Shown piece after piece: positions 28,569 to 35,545 of a stretch of DNA of 63,386 bases. The translations under genes were made by a program, and so were the position numbers. The first letter of the stretch is position 1; each line of letters starts with the position of its first letter. The stretch is from Methanomassiliicoccales archaeon (GTDB taxonomy: Archaea > Thermoplasmatota > Thermoplasmata > Methanomassiliicoccales > UBA472), in contig DATKZX010000008.1 in NCBI GenBank assembly GCA_035527755.1, positions 139,186-202,571 of the forward strand, written 5' to 3'. The notes under the pieces are model-generated. The model was not told the DNA's origin and did not search any database. It was given only the letters and a program-made list of their open reading frames with translations.

Positions 28569-29525
28569 ATGCTGGTGCGGGACAAGGACCCCCGGACGCT
28601 GCCGAACGGGAAGCGGCCTGAGGACCGCAGCATAGAAGAACTGCTCTCCGCCGGCGTCATCGTTCTCGACAAGGTGCAGGGACCTACCTCCCATCAGGTC
28701 ACCGCCTGGGTGCAGGACATGCTGGGTGTGGAGAAGATCGGGCACGGCGGTACTCTGGACCCCAACGTGAGCGGCGTTCTGCCCATCGCATTGGGAAAGG
28801 CGATACGCATGACCGACCTGGTGCTGCGTTCCGACAAGCAGTACGTCTGTCACCTCTACCTTCACCGTCAGGTTCCCGAAGAAAAGGTGCTCAACGTCAT
28901 CGGCACCTTCGTAGGCCCCATCTATCAGACGCCGCCGGTCCGTTCCGCGGTCAAGATCCAGATGCGTGTACGCAAGGTCCATACCATCGACATTCTGGAG
29001 ATGTCCGGACGGGACGTTCTCTTCAAGATCGATTGCGACGCCGGGACGTACATACGCACACTGTGCACCGATATCGGTGACGCGCTCGGTGTCGGGGCAA
29101 ACATGAAAGCGCTGCGTCGCACCCGCTCGGGCCGGATGACCGAAGATGAGGCGGTCACCCTGCAGGACCTCAAGGACGCCACGGTGCAATGGAAGCAGGG
29201 GGACGATTCCTGGTTGAGAAGCATGGTGCGCCCCATGGAGATACTGCTGGAGCCGTTGCCTAAAGTGATCGTCAAGGACGGTACGGTGGACGCCATAGCG
29301 CACGGGGCCGACCTGAACGCCCCGGGCATCATCAGCCTGGACGAGGGAATAGAGAAGGGTGGTCCGGTGGCCATGCTCACCGTGAAAGGGGAGGCGTTAG
29401 GTCTGGGAACAGCGGCCATGTCCTCCCGCGATATGTTCAAAGCTTACAAAGGCCGAGCGGTCAAGACCGTCCGGGTGTTCATTCCAGAAGGTACGTACCC
29501 ACGCATGTGGGGGGATCAGCAGTAG
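28569..29525 (+). CDS. cbf5: tRNA/rRNA pseudouridine synthase Cbf5
   Basis: This is the catalytic subunit of H/ACA ribonucleoproteins, also able to make psi55 in tRNA. The 318 residues contain the catalytic aspartate in GHGGTLDPNVSG (Asp64), the substrate-loop RSGRMTEDEAV segment, and a C-terminal PUA domain (about residues 235-305). It ends the uninterrupted operon started at rpl3. The last 10 bases overlap the convergent nuclease gene. Confidence 0.95.
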   Translation: MLVRDKDPRTLPNGKRPEDRSIEELLSAGVIVLDKVQGPTSHQVTAWVQDMLGVEKIGHGGTLDPNVSGVLPIALGKAIRMTDLVLRSDKQYVCHLYLHRQVPEEKVLNVIGTFVGPIYQTPPVRSAVKIQMRVRKVHTIDILEMSGRDVLFKIDCDAGTYIRTLCTDIGDALGVGANMKALRRTRSGRMTEDEAVTLQDLKDATVQWKQGDDSWLRSMVRPMEILLEPLPKVIVKDGTVDAIAHGADLNAPGIISLDEGIEKGGPVAMLTVKGEALGLGTAAMSSRDMFKAYKGRAVKTVRVFIPEGTYPRMWGDQQ

Positions 29526-30499
29526 CTGCCTAGATTGCTCTGCCCCTTTTTCAACGGCACGGCGGTGATCCCCAGCCGTTCCCTGATCTCCTTGGCCAAT
29601 ATCTCCTCCGAACCATGATGTATGTACACCTGGTCCGGAGAGCATCTCTTGACGAAGTCTATTATCTCGTAGAAATCGGCGTGGTCGGAGTAGGCGAACC
29701 CCTCGTCCATGCCCCAGCTGCGCCCGCTCACGCACCAGCCGGAGACGGTGGCGGTACGCCTCTTCTTCAGTGCGGAAAGGCCGTTCTCCCCCTTGGTATT
29801 GTGACTGATGACCAGCTGCGGCGTATCGTCCGCCGGATCGAACGGCAGATAATCGAACTTCAGGTCGTCCGCCTCCATCATGCGGGTGGTGTCCAGCACC
29901 GAACCGTGCAGCCGGGGCTGGAACTCCTTGAGCATGGTGGTCAGCTCCTGCGATTTGCCTAAAGGATAGGAATACAGCACCGCCGAGCATCCCTGGTTCA
30001 AGGTGTCCTCCACCCAGTCGCGGATGACGCCCATCATGGCGTTGCGGTTCGGGAAGCGGTAGCGCGGATTTCCGTAAGTAGCCTCGATGATCAGCGCGTC
30101 GCACTTCTGCGGACGGGCGCCTTCCATGCCCAGACGGTCCTGGGGGCAGAAATCGCCGGTGTACAGCACCTTCTTCCCCTCGTCGATCATGAACATGTTG
30201 GAACCGAGTATGTGACCGGCGCCGCTGGCATTGACCGACGGAAGATCGCCACGCTCCACGTTCTCCAGGTAGTTCTTGGACTTCTTGCTCTTGACCCGCC
30301 CGCGCAGGCAGCGCAGGGTGATGTCCGAGCAGAACAGCGGACCGCCGTCAAAGCTCGAGGGCATGTGATCGGAATGGGCGTGGGAGACGCAGCAAATACC
30401 GGCGGCAGAGACCTTGCGGGGGTCGAGAAAGTATTTCATCTGGCCGGAAGTAACTTCTATGCCATTGTCTGAGACAACGGAAAGCCCATCTCTTTCCAT
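29516..30499 (-). CDS. metallo-beta-lactamase/beta-CASP nuclease-like protein
   Basis: This is an RNA- or DNA-processing hydrolase of the beta-CASP family (Ysh1/CPSF or Artemis-like). From ATG 30499 it has about 327 residues, shorter than the KH-domain aCPSF1 type. Motif 2 HAHSDHM, motif 3 region GHILGSNMF, GDFC, ATYGNPRY and SDHADFYEI supply the zinc ligands. The chosen ATG lies about 22 bases after a TATA box (30521-30530), making a leaderless start; the frame is open 18 codons further. The start codon sits inside a perfect palindrome. Confidence 0.82.
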   Translation of the reverse strand: MERDGLSVVSDNGIEVTSGQMKYFLDPRKVSAAGICCVSHAHSDHMPSSFDGGPLFCSDITLRCLRGRVKSKKSKNYLENVERGDLPSVNASGAGHILGSNMFMIDEGKKVLYTGDFCPQDRLGMEGARPQKCDALIIEATYGNPRYRFPNRNAMMGVIRDWVEDTLNQGCSAVLYSYPLGKSQELTTMLKEFQPRLHGSVLDTTRMMEADDLKFDYLPFDPADDTPQLVISHNTKGENGLSALKKRRTATVSGWCVSGRSWGMDEGFAYSDHADFYEIIDFVKRCSPDQVYIHHGSEEILAKEIRERLGITAVPLKKGQSNLGSYC

Positions 30500-30512
30500 T
30501 GTCCGGACAATG
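30462..30512. promoter_or_regulatory. pair of related dyad-symmetric sites at the nuclease gene start
   Basis: CATTGTCCGGACAATG (30497-30512) is a perfect 16-base palindrome covering the start codon. A second site, CC-A-TTGTCT-G-AGACAA-C-GG (30462-30480), shares TTGTC half-sites. Their centres are about 33 bases apart, roughly three helical turns. This suggests cooperative binding of a dimeric regulator, perhaps autogenous. The second site lies inside the coding sequence. Confidence 0.5.
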
Positions 30513-30520
30513 CACCCTCG

Positions 30521-30530
30521 GATATTTACC
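30521..30530 (-). promoter_or_regulatory. TATA box of the beta-CASP nuclease gene
   Basis: On the minus strand GGTAAATATC lies about 22-31 bases before the ATG at 30499, giving a predicted transcription start at or next to the start codon. The perfect palindrome lies between box and start, where a bound protein would block polymerase. Confidence 0.5.
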
Positions 30531-30595
30531 AGTAGCGAGGACGTATCCATCATCGTCGTGGATGGTGTGCGGGACCGTACTCACGTTCGCCCGTA

Positions 30596-30752: not shown

Positions 30753-30936
30753 TCAATGGCCATTGACGGTGATGACATTACCAGATGCTGATATGATGGC
30801 GGTGTCCCTGCTGTAGAACGAGGCGCCATACATTGGGTCGCTGCTGGATATCGATGCTAGGTTGTACAGTGTATCGTTCAGCTGGCACTGCAGGGCGATG
30901 GCGCGTGGGAGGATTATGGTGTTCATGCCCTGCTGG
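30753..30936 (-). repeat. repeat A, copy 1 (N-terminal segment)
   Basis: This segment aligns at nucleotide level with 34403-34579. The last 60 bases, up to the shared GGTGTTCATGCCCTGCTGGAA on the plus strand, are almost identical; the rest is moderately diverged. Homology stops sharply at that point in both copies. Confidence 0.7.
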
Positions 30937-30980
30937 AAGCGGGAGTTAGCGGTGCTGACGTTGAGGTTAATGAGGTACAC
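30753..30980 (-). pseudogene. cassette remnant 1: N-terminal-domain fragment of the repeated membrane protein
   Basis: The 75-codon frame contains MNTIILPRAIALQCQLNDT, nearly identical to the start of the third cassette (34567), then stops after SASGNVITVNGH where that protein continues for over 380 residues. A stop codon (TAG) immediately precedes the GTG at 30980. In-frame sequence upstream of the shared methionine (VYLINLNVSTANSRFQQG) suggests the ancestral protein extended further N-terminally. It is therefore truncated at both ends. It could still be a short expressed peptide, but decay is more likely. Confidence 0.65.
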
Positions 30981-31006
30981 CTAGTCGTCCGCCTTTCAAC
31001 CATTAT

Positions 31007-31525
31007 TCATTCAGATGGCCCAGAGGTAAACCATCTGACACCGTTTGTATTCTTTAGAAATTCTTCGTAGTTCAATAATTTATTTCCAGTGATTGATTGA
31101 TACATTTCCTTGATTTTACGCCCAGACTCATAGTTTAATTCAATTGAACCTAACTTTCCATCGCTAAATTTTAAACTCGAATAAGGAGACCAAAAATCAT
31201 CCCCTGGCCATAGATTCAACCATTGGATATCAGTCCATTTTTTTTCTACCGATTTACTGAGTAAATATTTTATTTTTATTGATTCATTAGATAATTGAAC
31301 CTCTATTGGCGAAAACAGCCGAATATCCACTTCGAGAATAATTATGATAAATAATGTAATCGATAAAATTGCTCCCGTAATCACCCAGAAGTCGAATAAT
31401 ATTTGAGCCAATACAGTCAGAAAAATAAATCCTAAATATAATATATAATAATATTTTTTACTGATCTTTGGTATCGGAATAGGATAGGTAATCACATCTG
31501 CCTCTGAATTATTCAAGACCTTCAA
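31007..31525 (-). CDS. cassette 2 partner: small two-helix membrane protein with PH-like tail
   Basis: This protein of about 172 residues has two adjacent transmembrane helices near the N-terminus and a C-terminal beta-rich domain (IKIKYLLSKSVEKKWTDI) resembling bacterial PH domains. It starts with TTG at 31525 overlapping the stop of the large cassette gene (TTGA), or at a TTG nine bases on, after GGAGG at 31530. The DNA is strikingly AT-rich compared with the flanks, suggesting transfer. The layout matches the gene at 32787-33257, although sequence similarity is low. Confidence 0.65.
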   Translation of the reverse strand: MKVLNNSEADVITYPIPIPKISKKYYYILYLGFIFLTVLAQILFDFWVITGAILSITLFIIIILEVDIRLFSPIEVQLSNESIKIKYLLSKSVEKKWTDIQWLNLWPGDDFWSPYSSLKFSDGKLGSIELNYESGRKIKEMYQSITGNKLLNYEEFLKNTNGVRWFTSGPSE

Positions 31526-32790
31526 TCCTCCAAATACAAAGAACCGAGACTGAATAATACCGCGCAACCACCCGTGAGAATCGCTGTGACGTCAAAGGCT
31601 AATTTCGCCCCACAATTTTTTGATCCTCCGTATTTAAGATTGAGTAATCCCTCCCCTATTGAGAATAGACCAAATTCCAATCCAATGAACCCGGCCCAAC
31701 TTTTCAATGGGCCTCCGAAAATGGTGGATGTTCCGATTATCACTCCAAGCACGCCTGCGGCGAAGCTGCACAGACCGAAAAGACCGATATTGGAAAGGCC
31801 CGCTATCGCCAGCGAGAGCATCGTCGCCTGCGCTGCGACATATCCGAAGATAAACCCGAACATTGTCAACCCTGCAGACCAATCGAGACCTTCCTGGGAC
31901 TGCTCCTCCTCCGGAGTTTGCGGTCCTGCCCCCGCGTCCAAAGCGAGATCCCGAACATAGTCCGCTGTCAATCCATCGATGTTAACGTTAAAAGATTCAC
32001 CTCCGATATAATTTGAGGATAACATCTGTTCAATTATGTACATAACCGCGACGGATGCGATTATCCCGACTATGAAGCCGAAAACATTCGTGATAGCACT
32101 GATCGCCAGAACGATCACAAAGAATATCGTTGCTATTCCGAACAGTATCCAATAAAGCTCCCCGTTGAGCGCATTGACGAAATTCGATGCCCCCTTTGCA
32201 GAGATGGAACCGGTGCTCTCAACGTCCGATTGAATGAGGAGCATCGCGGAGTTCAATCCGGCCAGATAGGAATTGATAGCGTTCGTGACCGAAGATATCA
32301 ACGGATCGAACACCGCGGTCAATGTTGCTGTAATAAAATCGATCGCCCAGTCCACGAACGCCATGAACGCATCGACTATCGCGTCCACCGCGCCCTGAAC
32401 CGCCGCCGCGGCGGCGGAGAACATGTTACCTATCGCCTCCAGCCCAATCTCCACCAGGTGCACGAACAGCAGCAGCAGTCCGCCGCTGGCCACCCACACC
32501 AGGAAGTTGAAGATCATGTTTGCTATGTCACTGATGACGTCCAGCGGGTCAAAGAAGTTCGGCGCCTCGCCCAGACCGGAGTTCATTACGGACGTGGGTA
32601 TCGACGACAATATGTCGTTCGGCAGGTGCAGCAGGTAGACAGCGGTCGACGATATCGTCACATTGTTGCCGATTCGCGCACCCGTCGCGTTATGCGTGAG
32701 CTTGGTCAGTATGACCTCGGCCTGCGTGGCGGTGACGTTCTTGCTGATGACCGCGATTACGTGAGCGGAGGCGATGCACGTGGGGATCAT
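31522..32790 (-). CDS. cassette 2: multi-pass membrane protein lacking its N-terminal segment
   Basis: This 422-residue protein starts at ATG 32790, overlapping the previous stop (ATGA). Residues 8-140 closely match the third cassette: VIAVISKNVTATQAEVILTK, then a hydrophobic LLLLFVHLVEIGLEAIGNM helix and an alanine-rich amphipathic helix. After FVDW the sequences diverge completely; here the C-terminal part has about six further membrane helices and an EEEQSQEG loop. The first residues (MIPTCIA) are not homologous, so the gene was joined at a repeat boundary. Function unknown. Confidence 0.7.
   Translation of the reverse strand: MIPTCIASAHVIAVISKNVTATQAEVILTKLTHNATGARIGNNVTISSTAVYLLHLPNDILSSIPTSVMNSGLGEAPNFFDPLDVISDIANMIFNFLVWVASGGLLLLFVHLVEIGLEAIGNMFSAAAAAVQGAVDAIVDAFMAFVDWAIDFITATLTAVFDPLISSVTNAINSYLAGLNSAMLLIQSDVESTGSISAKGASNFVNALNGELYWILFGIATIFFVIVLAISAITNVFGFIVGIIASVAVMYIIEQMLSSNYIGGESFNVNIDGLTADYVRDLALDAGAGPQTPEEEQSQEGLDWSAGLTMFGFIFGYVAAQATMLSLAIAGLSNIGLFGLCSFAAGVLGVIIGTSTIFGGPLKSWAGFIGLEFGLFSIGEGLLNLKYGGSKNCGAKLAFDVTAILTGGCAVLFSLGSLYLED
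32369..32782 (-). repeat. repeat B, copy 1 (conserved middle segment)
   Basis: This segment aligns with 33985-34445 at roughly four identical bases in five by eye. It covers the extracellular-like segment, the first membrane helices and the alanine-rich helix of the cassette proteins. A local insertion after the MNSG motif (32580 region) distinguishes the copies. Confidence 0.7.
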
Positions 32791-33257
32791 AGGTTCCTGA
32801 ATCTGTTCTTCAGATCTTTAGCCAACCAGACCTCCCGCAGGGGCTTGTTCATTAAGAGATCGTAACGTTTCGCAATCTCGACAGCTGCGCTGTAACTGAC
32901 ATAGTTGAATTTCCTACCAAAATAGAAGATGATTGCCGGTGCGACTGTCGTTTCAGGACTTGAGCTGAGGCCGTAAGAGTTCAGTTTTGCCCAGGGGATA
33001 GATGTTCTCTTACCATTCACATAAAAAAGATCAACGCCGTGGTCTCCGACCCCTATCTTCAAGGGCACAGTGTAATCCCGAGCATACCAAAGACCGAAAT
33101 AGATCAGTAAAGCCATGAATACAGAGACGATAATTGGAATCAATCTTTGATAAACAATAATAAGAGGAAATCCAGATAGAGCGATGATTAGTGATAGTAC
33201 CTTCCATTTTTTTCTATGGTTTTCATTTCGAGGATAATCGAACGTTGCGTAATCCAT
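32787..33257 (-). CDS. cassette 3 partner: small two-helix membrane protein with PH-like tail
   Basis: This 156-residue protein begins MDYATFDYPRNENHRKKWK, then has two close hydrophobic helices (about 20-60) and a PH-like beta domain (VDLFYVNGKRTSIPWAKL). ATG 33257 is two bases after the stop of the large cassette protein, with GGTGG upstream, so expression is coupled. It parallels 31007-31525 in size and design. The pairing of a large and a small membrane protein is the repeating unit of the island. Confidence 0.65.
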   Translation of the reverse strand: MDYATFDYPRNENHRKKWKVLSLIIALSGFPLIIVYQRLIPIIVSVFMALLIYFGLWYARDYTVPLKIGVGDHGVDLFYVNGKRTSIPWAKLNSYGLSSSPETTVAPAIIFYFGRKFNYVSYSAAVEIAKRYDLLMNKPLREVWLAKDLKNRFRNL

Positions 33258-33259
33258 TA

Positions 33260-34567
33260 TTATACCACCATGCAAACGATATTTGAGATAAGCAGTATCG
33301 CGAGGAGTGTGTTACAACCAAAAATAATCAATTGAAGATCGTGGTCTAGATTGGCGATTGGTTTGAATGATTCGATGATTAATATCCCGCATATGGCGCA
33401 CAACAACACGTTCACCAGGATATCTTGGCTGGCGAGCGAATAGAAGGATATTATCAGGCAGAAGAGGGTGACCGCCAGACTACCGATTGAGCCGGTCGCG
33501 TCCCATGCTAACATAGATGGGATGATTGCTATTGTGAACCAAAAGCTATTGAGAATGCCAACAATAATGTCCGCACCACTCTGTTGTCCAAAGAAGCTCA
33601 CTATCCATGCGCTCACAGAATCCTCGCTTGTATCGTTCGGATTACCAGGGTCGTCCCCATTGGGATTAATGCCTAAAATTTCTGTTATCAGAACCATGAC
33701 CACAATCGTCACAAGGGTTCCCAACAGGAAGGTCATTCCACCAGAAATTATCTTCAATGCAAGAAGAACGGCATTAATACCTATTGCCAGTATGAACATC
33801 GATAAGAACAGATTGCCGTATAAAGCGTCAGATAGTGAGGACTTGTCATCATTATCCCCTGTTTCATTAACACAGTTCGCTGCCGCACTGATTGACGAAT
33901 AAGAATTCTCCCCAAGACTCAGGATAGGAGCAAGTACCGATGCATAGAGCTGATTCATCATCTCTATTGCTATAACTATGATCCAGTCCACGAACGCTGC
34001 GAACGCATCGACTATCGCGTCCATCGCGTCCTGCACCGCTGCCGCTGCGGCGGAGAGCATGTTGCCTATCGCTTCCAGCCCTATCTCCACCAGGTGGATG
34101 AAGAGAAGCAGCAGTCCGCCGCTGGCGACGAACACCAGGAAGTTGAAGATCATGCCGGCGATTTCGGTTATGCCACTGAAGATAACGAATATCTGATGTA
34201 CCGGGTCAAAATAGTAATGTCCCCCGCCCATGCCCGAGTTCATCACCGATGTGGGTATCGCCGAAAGTATATCGTTCGGCAGGTGCAGTAGATAGACGGC
34301 GGTCGATGAGATGGTTACGTTGTTGCCGATGCGCGCCCCAGTGGCGTTGTGCGTCAATTTCGTCAATATCGCCTCGGCCTGCGCGGCGGTGACGTTCTTC
34401 GAGATGACCGCGATGACGTGACCGGAGGCGGAGGCGCTCGAGGCGTCGGTGCTGTAGAACGAAGCTCCGTACAGAGGATCGCCGCTGGAGATCGATGCCA
34501 AGTTGTAAAGCGTGTCGTTGAGCTGGCACTGCAGAGCGATGGCGCGTGGGAGGATTATGGTGTTCAT
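33260..34567 (-). CDS. cassette 3: multi-pass membrane protein, conserved N-terminal and variable C-terminal part
   Basis: This 435-residue protein reads MNTIILPRAIALQCQLNDT at the start, has no signal peptide, and a thread of hydrophilic sequence up to about 115. A conserved membrane segment (LLLLFIHLVEIGLEAIGNM) and alanine-rich helix follow. From residue about 215 on, the sequence is unrelated to cassette 2 and has about six membrane helices. A TATA-like TTTAAATAT lies about 30 bases upstream. The first cassette shows that homologous sequence once extended further N-terminally. Function unknown. Confidence 0.7.
   Translation of the reverse strand: MNTIILPRAIALQCQLNDTLYNLASISSGDPLYGASFYSTDASSASASGHVIAVISKNVTAAQAEAILTKLTHNATGARIGNNVTISSTAVYLLHLPNDILSAIPTSVMNSGMGGGHYYFDPVHQIFVIFSGITEIAGMIFNFLVFVASGGLLLLFIHLVEIGLEAIGNMLSAAAAAVQDAMDAIVDAFAAFVDWIIVIAIEMMNQLYASVLAPILSLGENSYSSISAAANCVNETGDNDDKSSLSDALYGNLFLSMFILAIGINAVLLALKIISGGMTFLLGTLVTIVVMVLITEILGINPNGDDPGNPNDTSEDSVSAWIVSFFGQQSGADIIVGILNSFWFTIAIIPSMLAWDATGSIGSLAVTLFCLIISFYSLASQDILVNVLLCAICGILIIESFKPIANLDHDLQLIIFGCNTLLAILLISNIVCMVV
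33985..34445 (-). repeat. repeat B, copy 2
   Basis: This is the counterpart of 32369-32782 inside the third cassette. Together with repeat A it shows that this cassette carries both segments contiguously, whereas cassette 1 retains only A and cassette 2 only B. Confidence 0.7.
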
Positions 34568-34579
34568 GCCCTGCTGGAA
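34403..34579 (-). repeat. repeat A, copy 2
   Basis: This is the counterpart of 30753-30936. Identity ends abruptly after the plus-strand CTGCTGGAA; beyond it lies AT-rich unique sequence. Confidence 0.7.
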
Positions 34580-34807
34580 ATATTTTTATGAACGATATTT
34601 AAAAAATAGCCTTTGAGTTGCTTATTAGAAAATTGTTTGTTTCCTTGAACATCGTTAGTAGAAACGGAAGCATCAGCCATCCGATGTGTCCATTCCAGAT
34701 CGATATCGTATCTCGTCGATCTCGATGATCGCGCCGTCCATTTTCACCGACCTCTCCCCTTCAGCCCTTTATACCCTCAAAGCGAAGCGAGCGTAGAGAG
34801 AGAGAAA
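34580..34807. other. AT-rich edge of the cassette island
   Basis: The first 60 bases are AT-rich and hold the probable promoter of cassette 3 on the minus strand. The remainder carries no convincing gene. CTTTATACC at about 34768 is a TATA candidate for the RecA-like gene on the plus strand. Confidence 0.45.
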
Positions 34808-35545
34808 ATGTATCGCTCGATGCCGGAGACAGTGACCGAACCGCTGGTCCACGATTTCAATTCCGAATCGGATGGAGTACTGGCCACCACTGCCATACCT
34901 CCAGTGGACGAACTGCTGGGAGGATTGGAAGCGGGCACCGTCACCACCATCGACAGCTCCGACCGGCTGCTGTTCACCCTGATCAACATGCTCAGCGTGA
35001 ACTTCGTGCGGGAGTGGCATCGCGACGTGGTCTGGGTGGACGGCGGGAACTCCGTGAACCCTTACGATCTGACATACGTGTGCAAGCGCTTCCGCATGAG
35101 GCCGGAGGAAACGCTCTCCAGCATCAATGTGTCGAGGGCGTTCACCGCCTACCAGATGTCCACCCTGGTGGAGGAATCGTTGGAAGAGGAGCTGATGCGC
35201 AGCAAAGGCGGTATGATAGTCGTCTCCTGCTACCCCGATCTCTTCCAGGATGCCGATATGAACTGGGAGGAGTCGCTCAAGCTAATGGATAGGGGGATGA
35301 GCAAGCTGCGCTCCCTCACCTCCAAGCACCGCACCGTGACGGTCGTCACCAACTACGGATTGGCGAAGCTGATGTACCGCAAGGGATTGCGATCGCTGTT
35401 CTACGAGAAGGTCGACAGAGTGGTGAGCGTGGAGCACCGTTCCGGCTACGCGCGAATTTCCTTGCCCAGGGAGGAGAAGGAGATCATGTATCGTCCGGTC
35501 CCCCCGAACCAGACCACTCTGGACGAGTATCGGAGGAGTTGCTGA
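34808..35545 (+). CDS. RecA/RadA-superfamily protein without Walker motifs
   Basis: This 245-residue protein aligns with the RadA/RadB core: IPPVDELLGGLEAGTVTTI, then VVWVDGGNSVNPYDLTYVCK, VSRAFTAYQMSTLVEE. The P-loop position reads DSSDRLLF, with no GxxGxGKT, and the Walker B strand ends VVSCYPD, so ATP hydrolysis is unlikely. The last residues (NQTTLDEY) may be a short interaction motif. It overlaps the next gene by one base and leads into a polymerase gene. It is likely a polymerase-recruiting RecA paralogue, comparable in logic to bacterial ImuA; that is inference. Confidence 0.75.
   Translation: MYRSMPETVTEPLVHDFNSESDGVLATTAIPPVDELLGGLEAGTVTTIDSSDRLLFTLINMLSVNFVREWHRDVVWVDGGNSVNPYDLTYVCKRFRMRPEETLSSINVSRAFTAYQMSTLVEESLEEELMRSKGGMIVVSCYPDLFQDADMNWEESLKLMDRGMSKLRSLTSKHRTVTVVTNYGLAKLMYRKGLRSLFYEKVDRVVSVEHRSGYARISLPREEKEIMYRPVPPNQTTLDEYRRSC

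What the first reader, a model, noticed from the sequence alone, without database searches (positions are those of the whole stretch)
30753..34583. Tandem cassettes: conserved N-terminal part, variable membrane C-terminus, coupled small partner
Two large membrane proteins (31522-32790 and 33260-34567) share one conserved region but have unrelated multi-helix C-terminal parts. Each is followed, with overlapping or touching stop and start, by a small two-helix PH-like membrane protein. A third unit (30753-30980) is only a fragment. The units break at shared segments: copy 1 keeps repeat A, copy 2 only repeat B, copy 3 both. The partners differ in base composition. This resembles polymorphic toxin/immunity or silent-cassette layouts, or an archaeal surface-variation locus. 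No toxin activity is shown.
Basis: partly seen in the sequence, partly recalled or inferred. Interest (0 to 1): 0.82.

Follow-up and report, generated by a model that had tools for sequence, protein, structure and literature searches.

The report
Archaeal toxin-like surface cassettes with immunity partners
In a methane-producing archaeon, a stretch of DNA holds broken-off tail ends of a giant cell-surface protein, each paired with a matching small membrane protein; relatives carry the full-length version and swap tail-plus-partner units, which is the layout bacteria use for contact weapons and their antidotes.

Summary
The layout is real, on the minus strand: L1 (34567-33260), S1, L2 (32790-31522), S2, then fragment F, tightly packed between two core genes. 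L1 and L2 share an ~80% identical module; their C-terminal parts are not unrelated but very diverged members of one multi-helix membrane family, and S1 and S2 are likewise diverged homologues.

Related Thermoplasmata archaea carry full-length versions: giant secreted proteins (up to 3610 aa; signal sequence, fibronectin-like repeats) ending in this module and a 5-6-helix C-terminus (CT). In 37 of 42 CT genes a small two-helix partner gene follows immediately (11 of 282 controls). CT tracks partner (r=0.83), not module (0.31). One relative's gene is a clear chimera that switches tail and partner together. At this very site, congeners range from empty, through a single repeat scar, to a signal-peptide giant.

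Best reading: N-terminally truncated cassettes of a polymorphic-toxin-like (effector/immunity) surface system whose effector acts in the membrane. Toxicity is not shown, and no known toxin domain was found. In near-orthologous pairs variation concentrates in the CT's end and usually in the partner's membrane half, suggesting recognition inside the membrane. The searchable literature held no description of it.

The parts
33260..34567 (-). L1: N-terminally truncated large protein (435 aa) = conserved module + variable 6-helix membrane C-terminus; no signal peptide
   Evidence: pN/pS 0.21 (module) and 0.29 (CT) against the G005 copy
33977..34567 (-). conserved module of L1 (residues 1-197, model positions 27-215 of 216)
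   Evidence: hmmsearch with A1, E 5e-87
33263..33976 (-). variable membrane C-terminus (CT) of L1
   Evidence: class-wide CT profile E 1e-49
32787..33257 (-). S1: small partner of L1, two hydrophobic segments then a PH-like region; likely immunity/cognate partner
   Evidence: 71-74% identical to the partner of the same CT in G005
31522..32790 (-). L2: second cassette (422 aa), lacks repeat A, starts at the junction 'MIPTCIASA' that it shares with G005
32338..32775 (-). conserved module part of L2 (model positions 72-216)
   Evidence: hmmsearch E 1e-64
31525..32337 (-). variable membrane C-terminus (CT) of L2
   Evidence: E 4e-69
31007..31516 (-). S2: small partner of L2 (TTG start after GGAGG; the mechanical ORF starts at 31567), 33% G+C
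30753..30980 (-). F: start of a third cassette (VYLINLNV... repeat A only), ends in a stop
   Evidence: E 3e-30 to the module profile
34405..34579 (-). repeat A, copy in L1
   Evidence: 82% over 175 bp to 30764-30938
30764..30938 (-). repeat A, copy in F; the sister species G001 keeps a single hybrid copy of A in place of the whole array
33983..34430 (-). repeat B, copy in L1
   Evidence: 80% over 448 bp to 32347-32773
32347..32773 (-). repeat B, copy in L2
29516..30553 (-). flanking metallo-beta-lactamase-like gene (345 aa), marks one side of the variable site
34808..35545 (+). flanking RecA/RadA-like gene (245 aa), marks the other side; the giant gene starts divergently from it in G005 and G009

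Best explanation
The locus is an array of C-terminal cassettes from a polymorphic-toxin-like, contact-acting surface system of Thermoplasmata. In the complete form (relatives), a giant protein is exported by a signal peptide, displays a stalk of fibronectin-like repeats, and ends in a conserved module followed by a hypervariable multi-helix membrane effector; the gene directly downstream makes the cognate two-helix membrane immunity protein. Extra cassettes (module + tail + partner) lie behind it and exchange with the full gene by recombination in the module. In this genome the giant's N-terminal part is gone, leaving two cassettes and a fragment as a reservoir and/or as retained immunity genes. 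Shown: architecture, pairing, exchange, gain/loss at the site. Inferred: that the tail harms a non-kin cell's membrane, that the partner protects, and that delivery needs cell contact.
For: Giant signal-peptide proteins ending in the module and CT: 3610, 2370, 2176 and 2802 aa; Fn3-like repeats over Pfam cut-offs. CT followed at once by a small 2-TM gene in 37/42 cases against 11/282 control ORFs, and against 6/37 multi-TM controls. CT identity tracks partner identity (r 0.83) far more than module identity (0.31); partial Mantel 0 of 5000; partner against module 0.16. Modules 86-93% identical within one genome carry tails only 20-35% alike (G188, G049, G043). G002's gene is ~93% identical to the G003 giant up to one point and then ~90% identical to the G003 orphan cassette, and carries that cassette's partner (Fisher 3e-52). 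W2 and G005's second cassette share a junction and an 86% module but have different tails and different partners. Site polymorphism in the genus. L1 and S1 under purifying constraint between species, pN/pS 0.2-0.3, similar to a flanking gene (0.28). Solitary, mutually diverged partner-like genes in genomes with no detected CT, as expected of immunity genes.
Against: No known toxin or immunity family matches. All tails belong to one family instead of the assorted enzymes typical of polymorphic toxins. Toxicity, secretion and contact dependence are untested. Exported through Sec, a multi-helix tail might simply anchor the protein in the producer's own membrane. Some solitary partner-like domains sit in unrelated proteins (zinc ribbon + membrane, L203), so that profile is not immunity-specific. 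Five of 42 CTs have no partner detected.
Confidence: 0.6

Rival explanations
1. Non-toxic self-recognition or adhesion system: the tail anchors a giant, variable surface protein in the membrane and must match its partner protein (in the same or a touching cell) for recognition; mismatch changes behaviour rather than kills, like IdsD/IdsE of Proteus mirabilis.
For: The tail is a single membrane family, not diverse enzymes. Variation lies in the CT's last stretch and the partner's membrane half, fitting a matching device. Ids is a published non-lethal precedent for cognate pairs (PMC6682164). The authors of VARTIG, a similar archaeal layout, also list recognition and adhesion (PMC8416519).
Against: Orphan cassettes without signal peptide but with partner, and solitary partner-like genes, fit immunity and reservoir better than an anchor complex.
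Confidence: 0.25
2. At this locus the array is only a decaying relic with no present function, whatever the family does elsewhere.
For: L1, L2 and F all lack the N-terminal part and any signal peptide; F is a 75-codon stump; the sister species G001 and also G008 keep only a repeat-A scar.
Against: Four ORFs of 168-435 codons stay open with tight start/stop coupling, and L1/S1 show pN/pS 0.2-0.3 against G005, although part of that constraint may predate the truncation.
Confidence: 0.4
3. The pair is an ordinary membrane machine (transporter or secretion subunit plus accessory subunit) that happens to be variable.
For: Both members are membrane proteins of fixed size and always adjacent.
Against: No Pfam, NCBIfam or PDB match; extreme divergence of CT while the attached module stays 80-93% identical; presence/absence within one genus.
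Confidence: 0.07

Closest known systems
VARTIG gene modules of Thermococcales (PMC8416519)
   Same: Archaeal array led by a long secreted protein with Ig-like repeats, recombining variable C-terminal region, downstream shorter homologues of its C-terminus, and small membrane proteins that follow particular subfamilies; no recognised toxin domain.
   Different: VARTIG is reported as confined to Thermococcales; its variable part is Ig domains with at most one C-terminal helix, whereas here the variable part is a 5-6-helix membrane domain and each has one dedicated 2-helix partner. Homology between the two was not tested.
Polymorphic toxin systems (Zhang et al. 2012, PMC3482391), including CdiA/CdiI with orphan CdiA-CT/CdiI cassettes
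   Same: Long exported protein, conserved stem, exchangeable C-terminus, immunity gene directly downstream, orphan cassettes, solitary immunity-like genes; that survey lists two-helix membrane immunity proteins (Imm-CdiI, Imm17).
   Different: There the C-termini are many unrelated toxin folds, mostly nucleases and other enzymes; here one membrane family only, no recognised toxin, delivery or processing domain, and an archaeal lineage.
IdsD/IdsE self-recognition pair of Proteus mirabilis (PMC6682164)
   Same: Cognate pair with matching variable regions; mismatch matters to the recipient.
   Different: Delivered by type VI secretion and non-lethal; no giant fibronectin-repeat protein. No homology tested.
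Adhesin-like / FN3-domain proteins of Methanomassiliicoccales (PMC7883539)
   Same: The same order; FN3-domain proteins are counted there as adhesion factors, more in the free-living clade; the giants found here would probably be counted among them (inference).
   Different: That paper only counts domains; searching it for 'toxin' gave nothing.

Membership tests
Polymorphic toxin system | long multidomain exported protein with a conserved N-terminal part | tested here: met
   in relatives, not in this genome: hydrophobic N-terminal signal segment and Fn3-like repeats; in G000 only truncated copies
Polymorphic toxin system | C-terminus exchanged by recombination while the stem stays conserved | tested here: met
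Polymorphic toxin system | cognate immunity gene immediately downstream of each C-terminus | tested here: met
   as a dedicated, co-varying adjacent gene: 37/42 against 11/282 controls; r 0.83. Immunity activity itself not tested
Polymorphic toxin system | orphan cassettes homologous to the C-terminal part behind the main gene | tested here: met
   L036, L048, L053, L209, L213 and the window
Polymorphic toxin system | recognisable and structurally diverse toxin domains at the C-terminus | tested here: not met
   no Pfam or NCBIfam toxin match; all C-termini belong to one membrane family
Polymorphic toxin system | C-terminus is toxic and neutralised by its partner | not testable with these tools
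   needs expression experiments
VARTIG | variable C-terminal region made of Ig domains | tested here: not met
   the variable part is 5-6 hydrophobic helices; beta repeats lie upstream of it
VARTIG | homology to the arCOG07710 proteins | not tested
   no arCOG profiles at hand
CDI (CdiB/CdiA/CdiI) | two-partner secretion domain and CdiB transporter | tested here: inconclusive
   no haemagglutination/TPS domain reported in the two giants scanned; CdiB not searched for, and an outer membrane is not expected in this archaeon

The most novel reading that the evidence does not exclude
A family of archaeal contact-dependent effectors in which one membrane-inserting fold, not a set of unrelated enzymes, is diversified allelically, and specificity is read inside the lipid bilayer between the last helices of the effector and the two-helix hairpin of its immunity protein; used for kin discrimination in Thermoplasmata.
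Probability: 0.35. Interest if true: 0.85.

Novelty: new variant of a known kind. Interest (0 to 1): 0.7.

Why it matters
Contact weapons and kin recognition in archaea are largely predictions; VARTIG, the nearest published archaeal layout, lacked any toxin candidate and had too few close genomes to place recombination points (PMC8416519). Here several species of one genus show presence, absence, scar, chimera and full gene at one site, with crossover points visible and with co-varying effector/partner pairs small enough to clone (about 250 and 160 residues). That makes a direct toxin/immunity test, and a test of how specificity is encoded inside a membrane, practical.

Tried and rejected
(1) Known families: Pfam and NCBIfam for L1, L2, S1, S2 and relatives gave nothing above cut-off; PDB profile searches with module, CT and partner gave only chance-level hits. 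(2) Structures: the permitted alignment held four sequences; L1 pLDDT 40 and S1 pLDDT 60, too poor for a fold search, which was not run. Proteins from loci outside the tool's stated permission were not sent. (3) Mobile-element idea: no match in viral contigs, phages or plasmids. (4) A tandem array of ~180-aa membrane-anchored proteins (L207) first looked like a poly-immunity locus; checked and dropped, since only two of its eleven genes are clearly partner-like. (5) That all solitary partner-like genes are one housekeeping orthologue: mutual identities 20-33% apart from one pair at 45%, so not so. (6) Paralogue in the same genome: none outside the window. (7) The key archaeal toxin survey (Makarova et al. 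2019, mBio) is not held, so a prior description there cannot be excluded.
Full report
WHAT IS THERE. The window is part of a Methanomassiliicoccaceae-type archaeal genome (G000, 1.68 Mb, 26 contigs; the congeners G003 and G007 correspond to records titled Methanomassiliicoccaceae archaeon UBA472 and Methanomassiliicoccales archaeon OWC_0010). Between a metallo-beta-lactamase-like gene (29516-30553, -) and a RecA-like gene (34808-35545, +) lie, on the minus strand, L1 34567-33260, S1 33257-32787, L2 32790-31522, S2 31516-31007 and the stump F 30980-30753. Starts and stops touch or overlap at each L/S and S/L step, so the four genes look like one transcription unit. L1 and L2 share repeat B (80% over 448 bp), L1 and F repeat A (82% over 175 bp). 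These are the only matches in the genome.

THE FULL-LENGTH FORM. The module of L1 is found inside much longer reading frames in relatives: 3610 aa (G003), 2370 aa (G007), 2176 and 2802 aa (G043). These start with a hydrophobic signal segment. The two that were scanned with Pfam (G003, G007) carry runs of fibronectin/purple-acid-phosphatase-N type repeats over Pfam cut-offs: up to 19 stretches in the G003 protein. At the end they have the module, then a C-terminus (CT) of about 240-290 residues with mostly 5-6 hydrophobic helices, and then a separate small gene of about 130-230 codons with two hydrophobic segments. Module profile matches occur in 28 of 400 Thermoplasmata genomes sampled, in 16 genera; in the phylum-wide sample only one weak hit fell outside the class. 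A CT profile reaches 29 of 400 genomes. There is nothing in the viral, phage or plasmid collections.

PAIRING. Of 42 CT-bearing ORFs with a stop and room behind it, 37 are followed within -110 to +60 nt by a 100-260 aa ORF with one to three hydrophobic helices, against 11 of 282 other large ORFs in the same loci and 6 of 37 multi-helix ones (Fisher 2e-33 against all controls). One of the five exceptions is a natural CT-partner fusion (L039:1371-3053). Across 19 sets with module, CT and partner, CT identity correlates with partner identity at 0.83, with module identity at 0.31, and partner with module at 0.16; the partial Mantel test was reached by 0 of 5000 permutations. Leaving out near-identical tails (CT over 60%), CT-partner correlation is 0.49 and module-partner -0.06. 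These 19 sets are not independent of each other; the permutation test treats them as exchangeable.

EXCHANGE. L1 and L2 have 81% identical modules, but tails 15% and partners 13% identical in a multiple alignment. In G002 the gene (824 aa) is 149/160 identical to the G003 giant and then falls to about a quarter; against the orphan cassette of G003 it runs the other way, about 90% after the same point, and its partner is that cassette's partner at 73-75%. The second cassette of the window and that of G005 begin with the same junction (MIPTCIASA) behind the same S1 gene (72% identical) and share an 86% module, yet carry different tails (23%) and partners (19%). Tail and partner therefore change together, at the module.

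THE SITE ACROSS THE GENUS. Approximate distance between the two flanking genes: G002 0.28 kb and G006 0.34 kb (empty), G007 0.78 kb (empty; its giant is elsewhere), G001 0.61 kb, G008 1.06 kb, window 4.25 kb, G003 5.0 kb (1026-aa gene plus stump), G009 5.8 kb (signal-peptide ORF of 1486 aa, interrupted, ending at repeat A). In G005, contig ends show the signal-peptide giant on the RecA side and cassettes on the other. G001, the closest relative (98% in the flanking genes), keeps one copy of repeat A that is joined to the L1-side flank on one side and the F-side flank on the other and is mixed in between: what deletion by recombination between the two A copies would leave. It shares the truncation point of L1, so the loss of the giant's front is older than the split of G000 and G001. 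These are draft genomes, and the scar could in principle be an assembly artefact; the 82% identity of the repeats makes a collapse unlikely.

CONSTRAINT AND HOT SPOTS. Against G005, pN/pS is 0.21 (L1 module), 0.29 (L1 tail) and 0.21-0.28 (S1), next to 0.10 and 0.28 for the two flanking genes; the reading frames have been under selection for at least part of that time. In near-orthologous pairs the partner's membrane half varies more than its other half: 44% against 93% identity in G002/G003o, 53-55% against 87-90% in L1's partner against G005, 14% against 39% in G003g/G005b. The end of the CT varies more than its earlier part: 70 against 96%, 42 against 68%, 58 against 89%. A fourth kind of pair (G049c/G051o) shows no such gradient. 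The cut points were chosen after looking at the profiles, so the p-values are descriptive. The pattern suggests that the pair recognises each other within the membrane.

MECHANISM. The anatomy is that of a polymorphic effector/immunity system: exported stem, interchangeable tail, dedicated partner, orphan cassettes, solitary partner-like genes that are mutually diverged, and gain and loss at a fixed site. Because the tails are multi-helix membrane domains and the partners are membrane proteins, the most likely action is insertion into and disturbance of a neighbour's membrane, blocked by the partner. The tail's toxicity, the partner's protection and the route of delivery are inferences. The main alternative is a matching device for recognition without killing; VARTIG's authors raised the same alternatives for a comparable archaeal layout, and Ids is a non-lethal bacterial case.

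NOVELTY. No family model covers module, tail or partner. Full-text searches for polymorphic toxins with Methanomassiliicoccales gave no paper and with Thermoplasmata two that do not treat it in title or abstract. The 2019 survey of archaeal polymorphic toxins was not available, so a mention there cannot be ruled out. I rate it a new variant of a known kind.

Noticed in passing
L039:1371-3053: In G005 a copy of L1's tail lacking its last ~45 residues is fused in frame to the S1 partner: a natural CT-partner fusion, useful as a single-chain target for structure work.
   Followed up: partly
L188, L189, L190, L191, L192, L193, L194, L197, L198, L200, L204: Solitary partner-like two-helix genes next to ordinary genes, in genomes with or without a detected CT; mutually 20-33% identical apart from one pair at 45%.
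   Followed up: partly
L203:3934-5427 and L205:4235-5731: ~498-aa membrane proteins that contain a partner-like two-helix domain; the L203 one has an N-terminal zinc ribbon; not linked to CTs.
   Followed up: no
L207:11474-16000: Tandem array of at least six related ~180-aa proteins with an N-terminal membrane anchor and a probably Ig-like domain (27-72% identical to each other); not the partner family, unexplained.
   Followed up: partly
L124:5088-9773 and L041:1-4728: G005 holds two copies of the giant's signal-peptide N-terminal part; both break at a contig end at the same Asp-rich repeat (CGTLTDPTRNDTDDDGCPDN).
   Followed up: no
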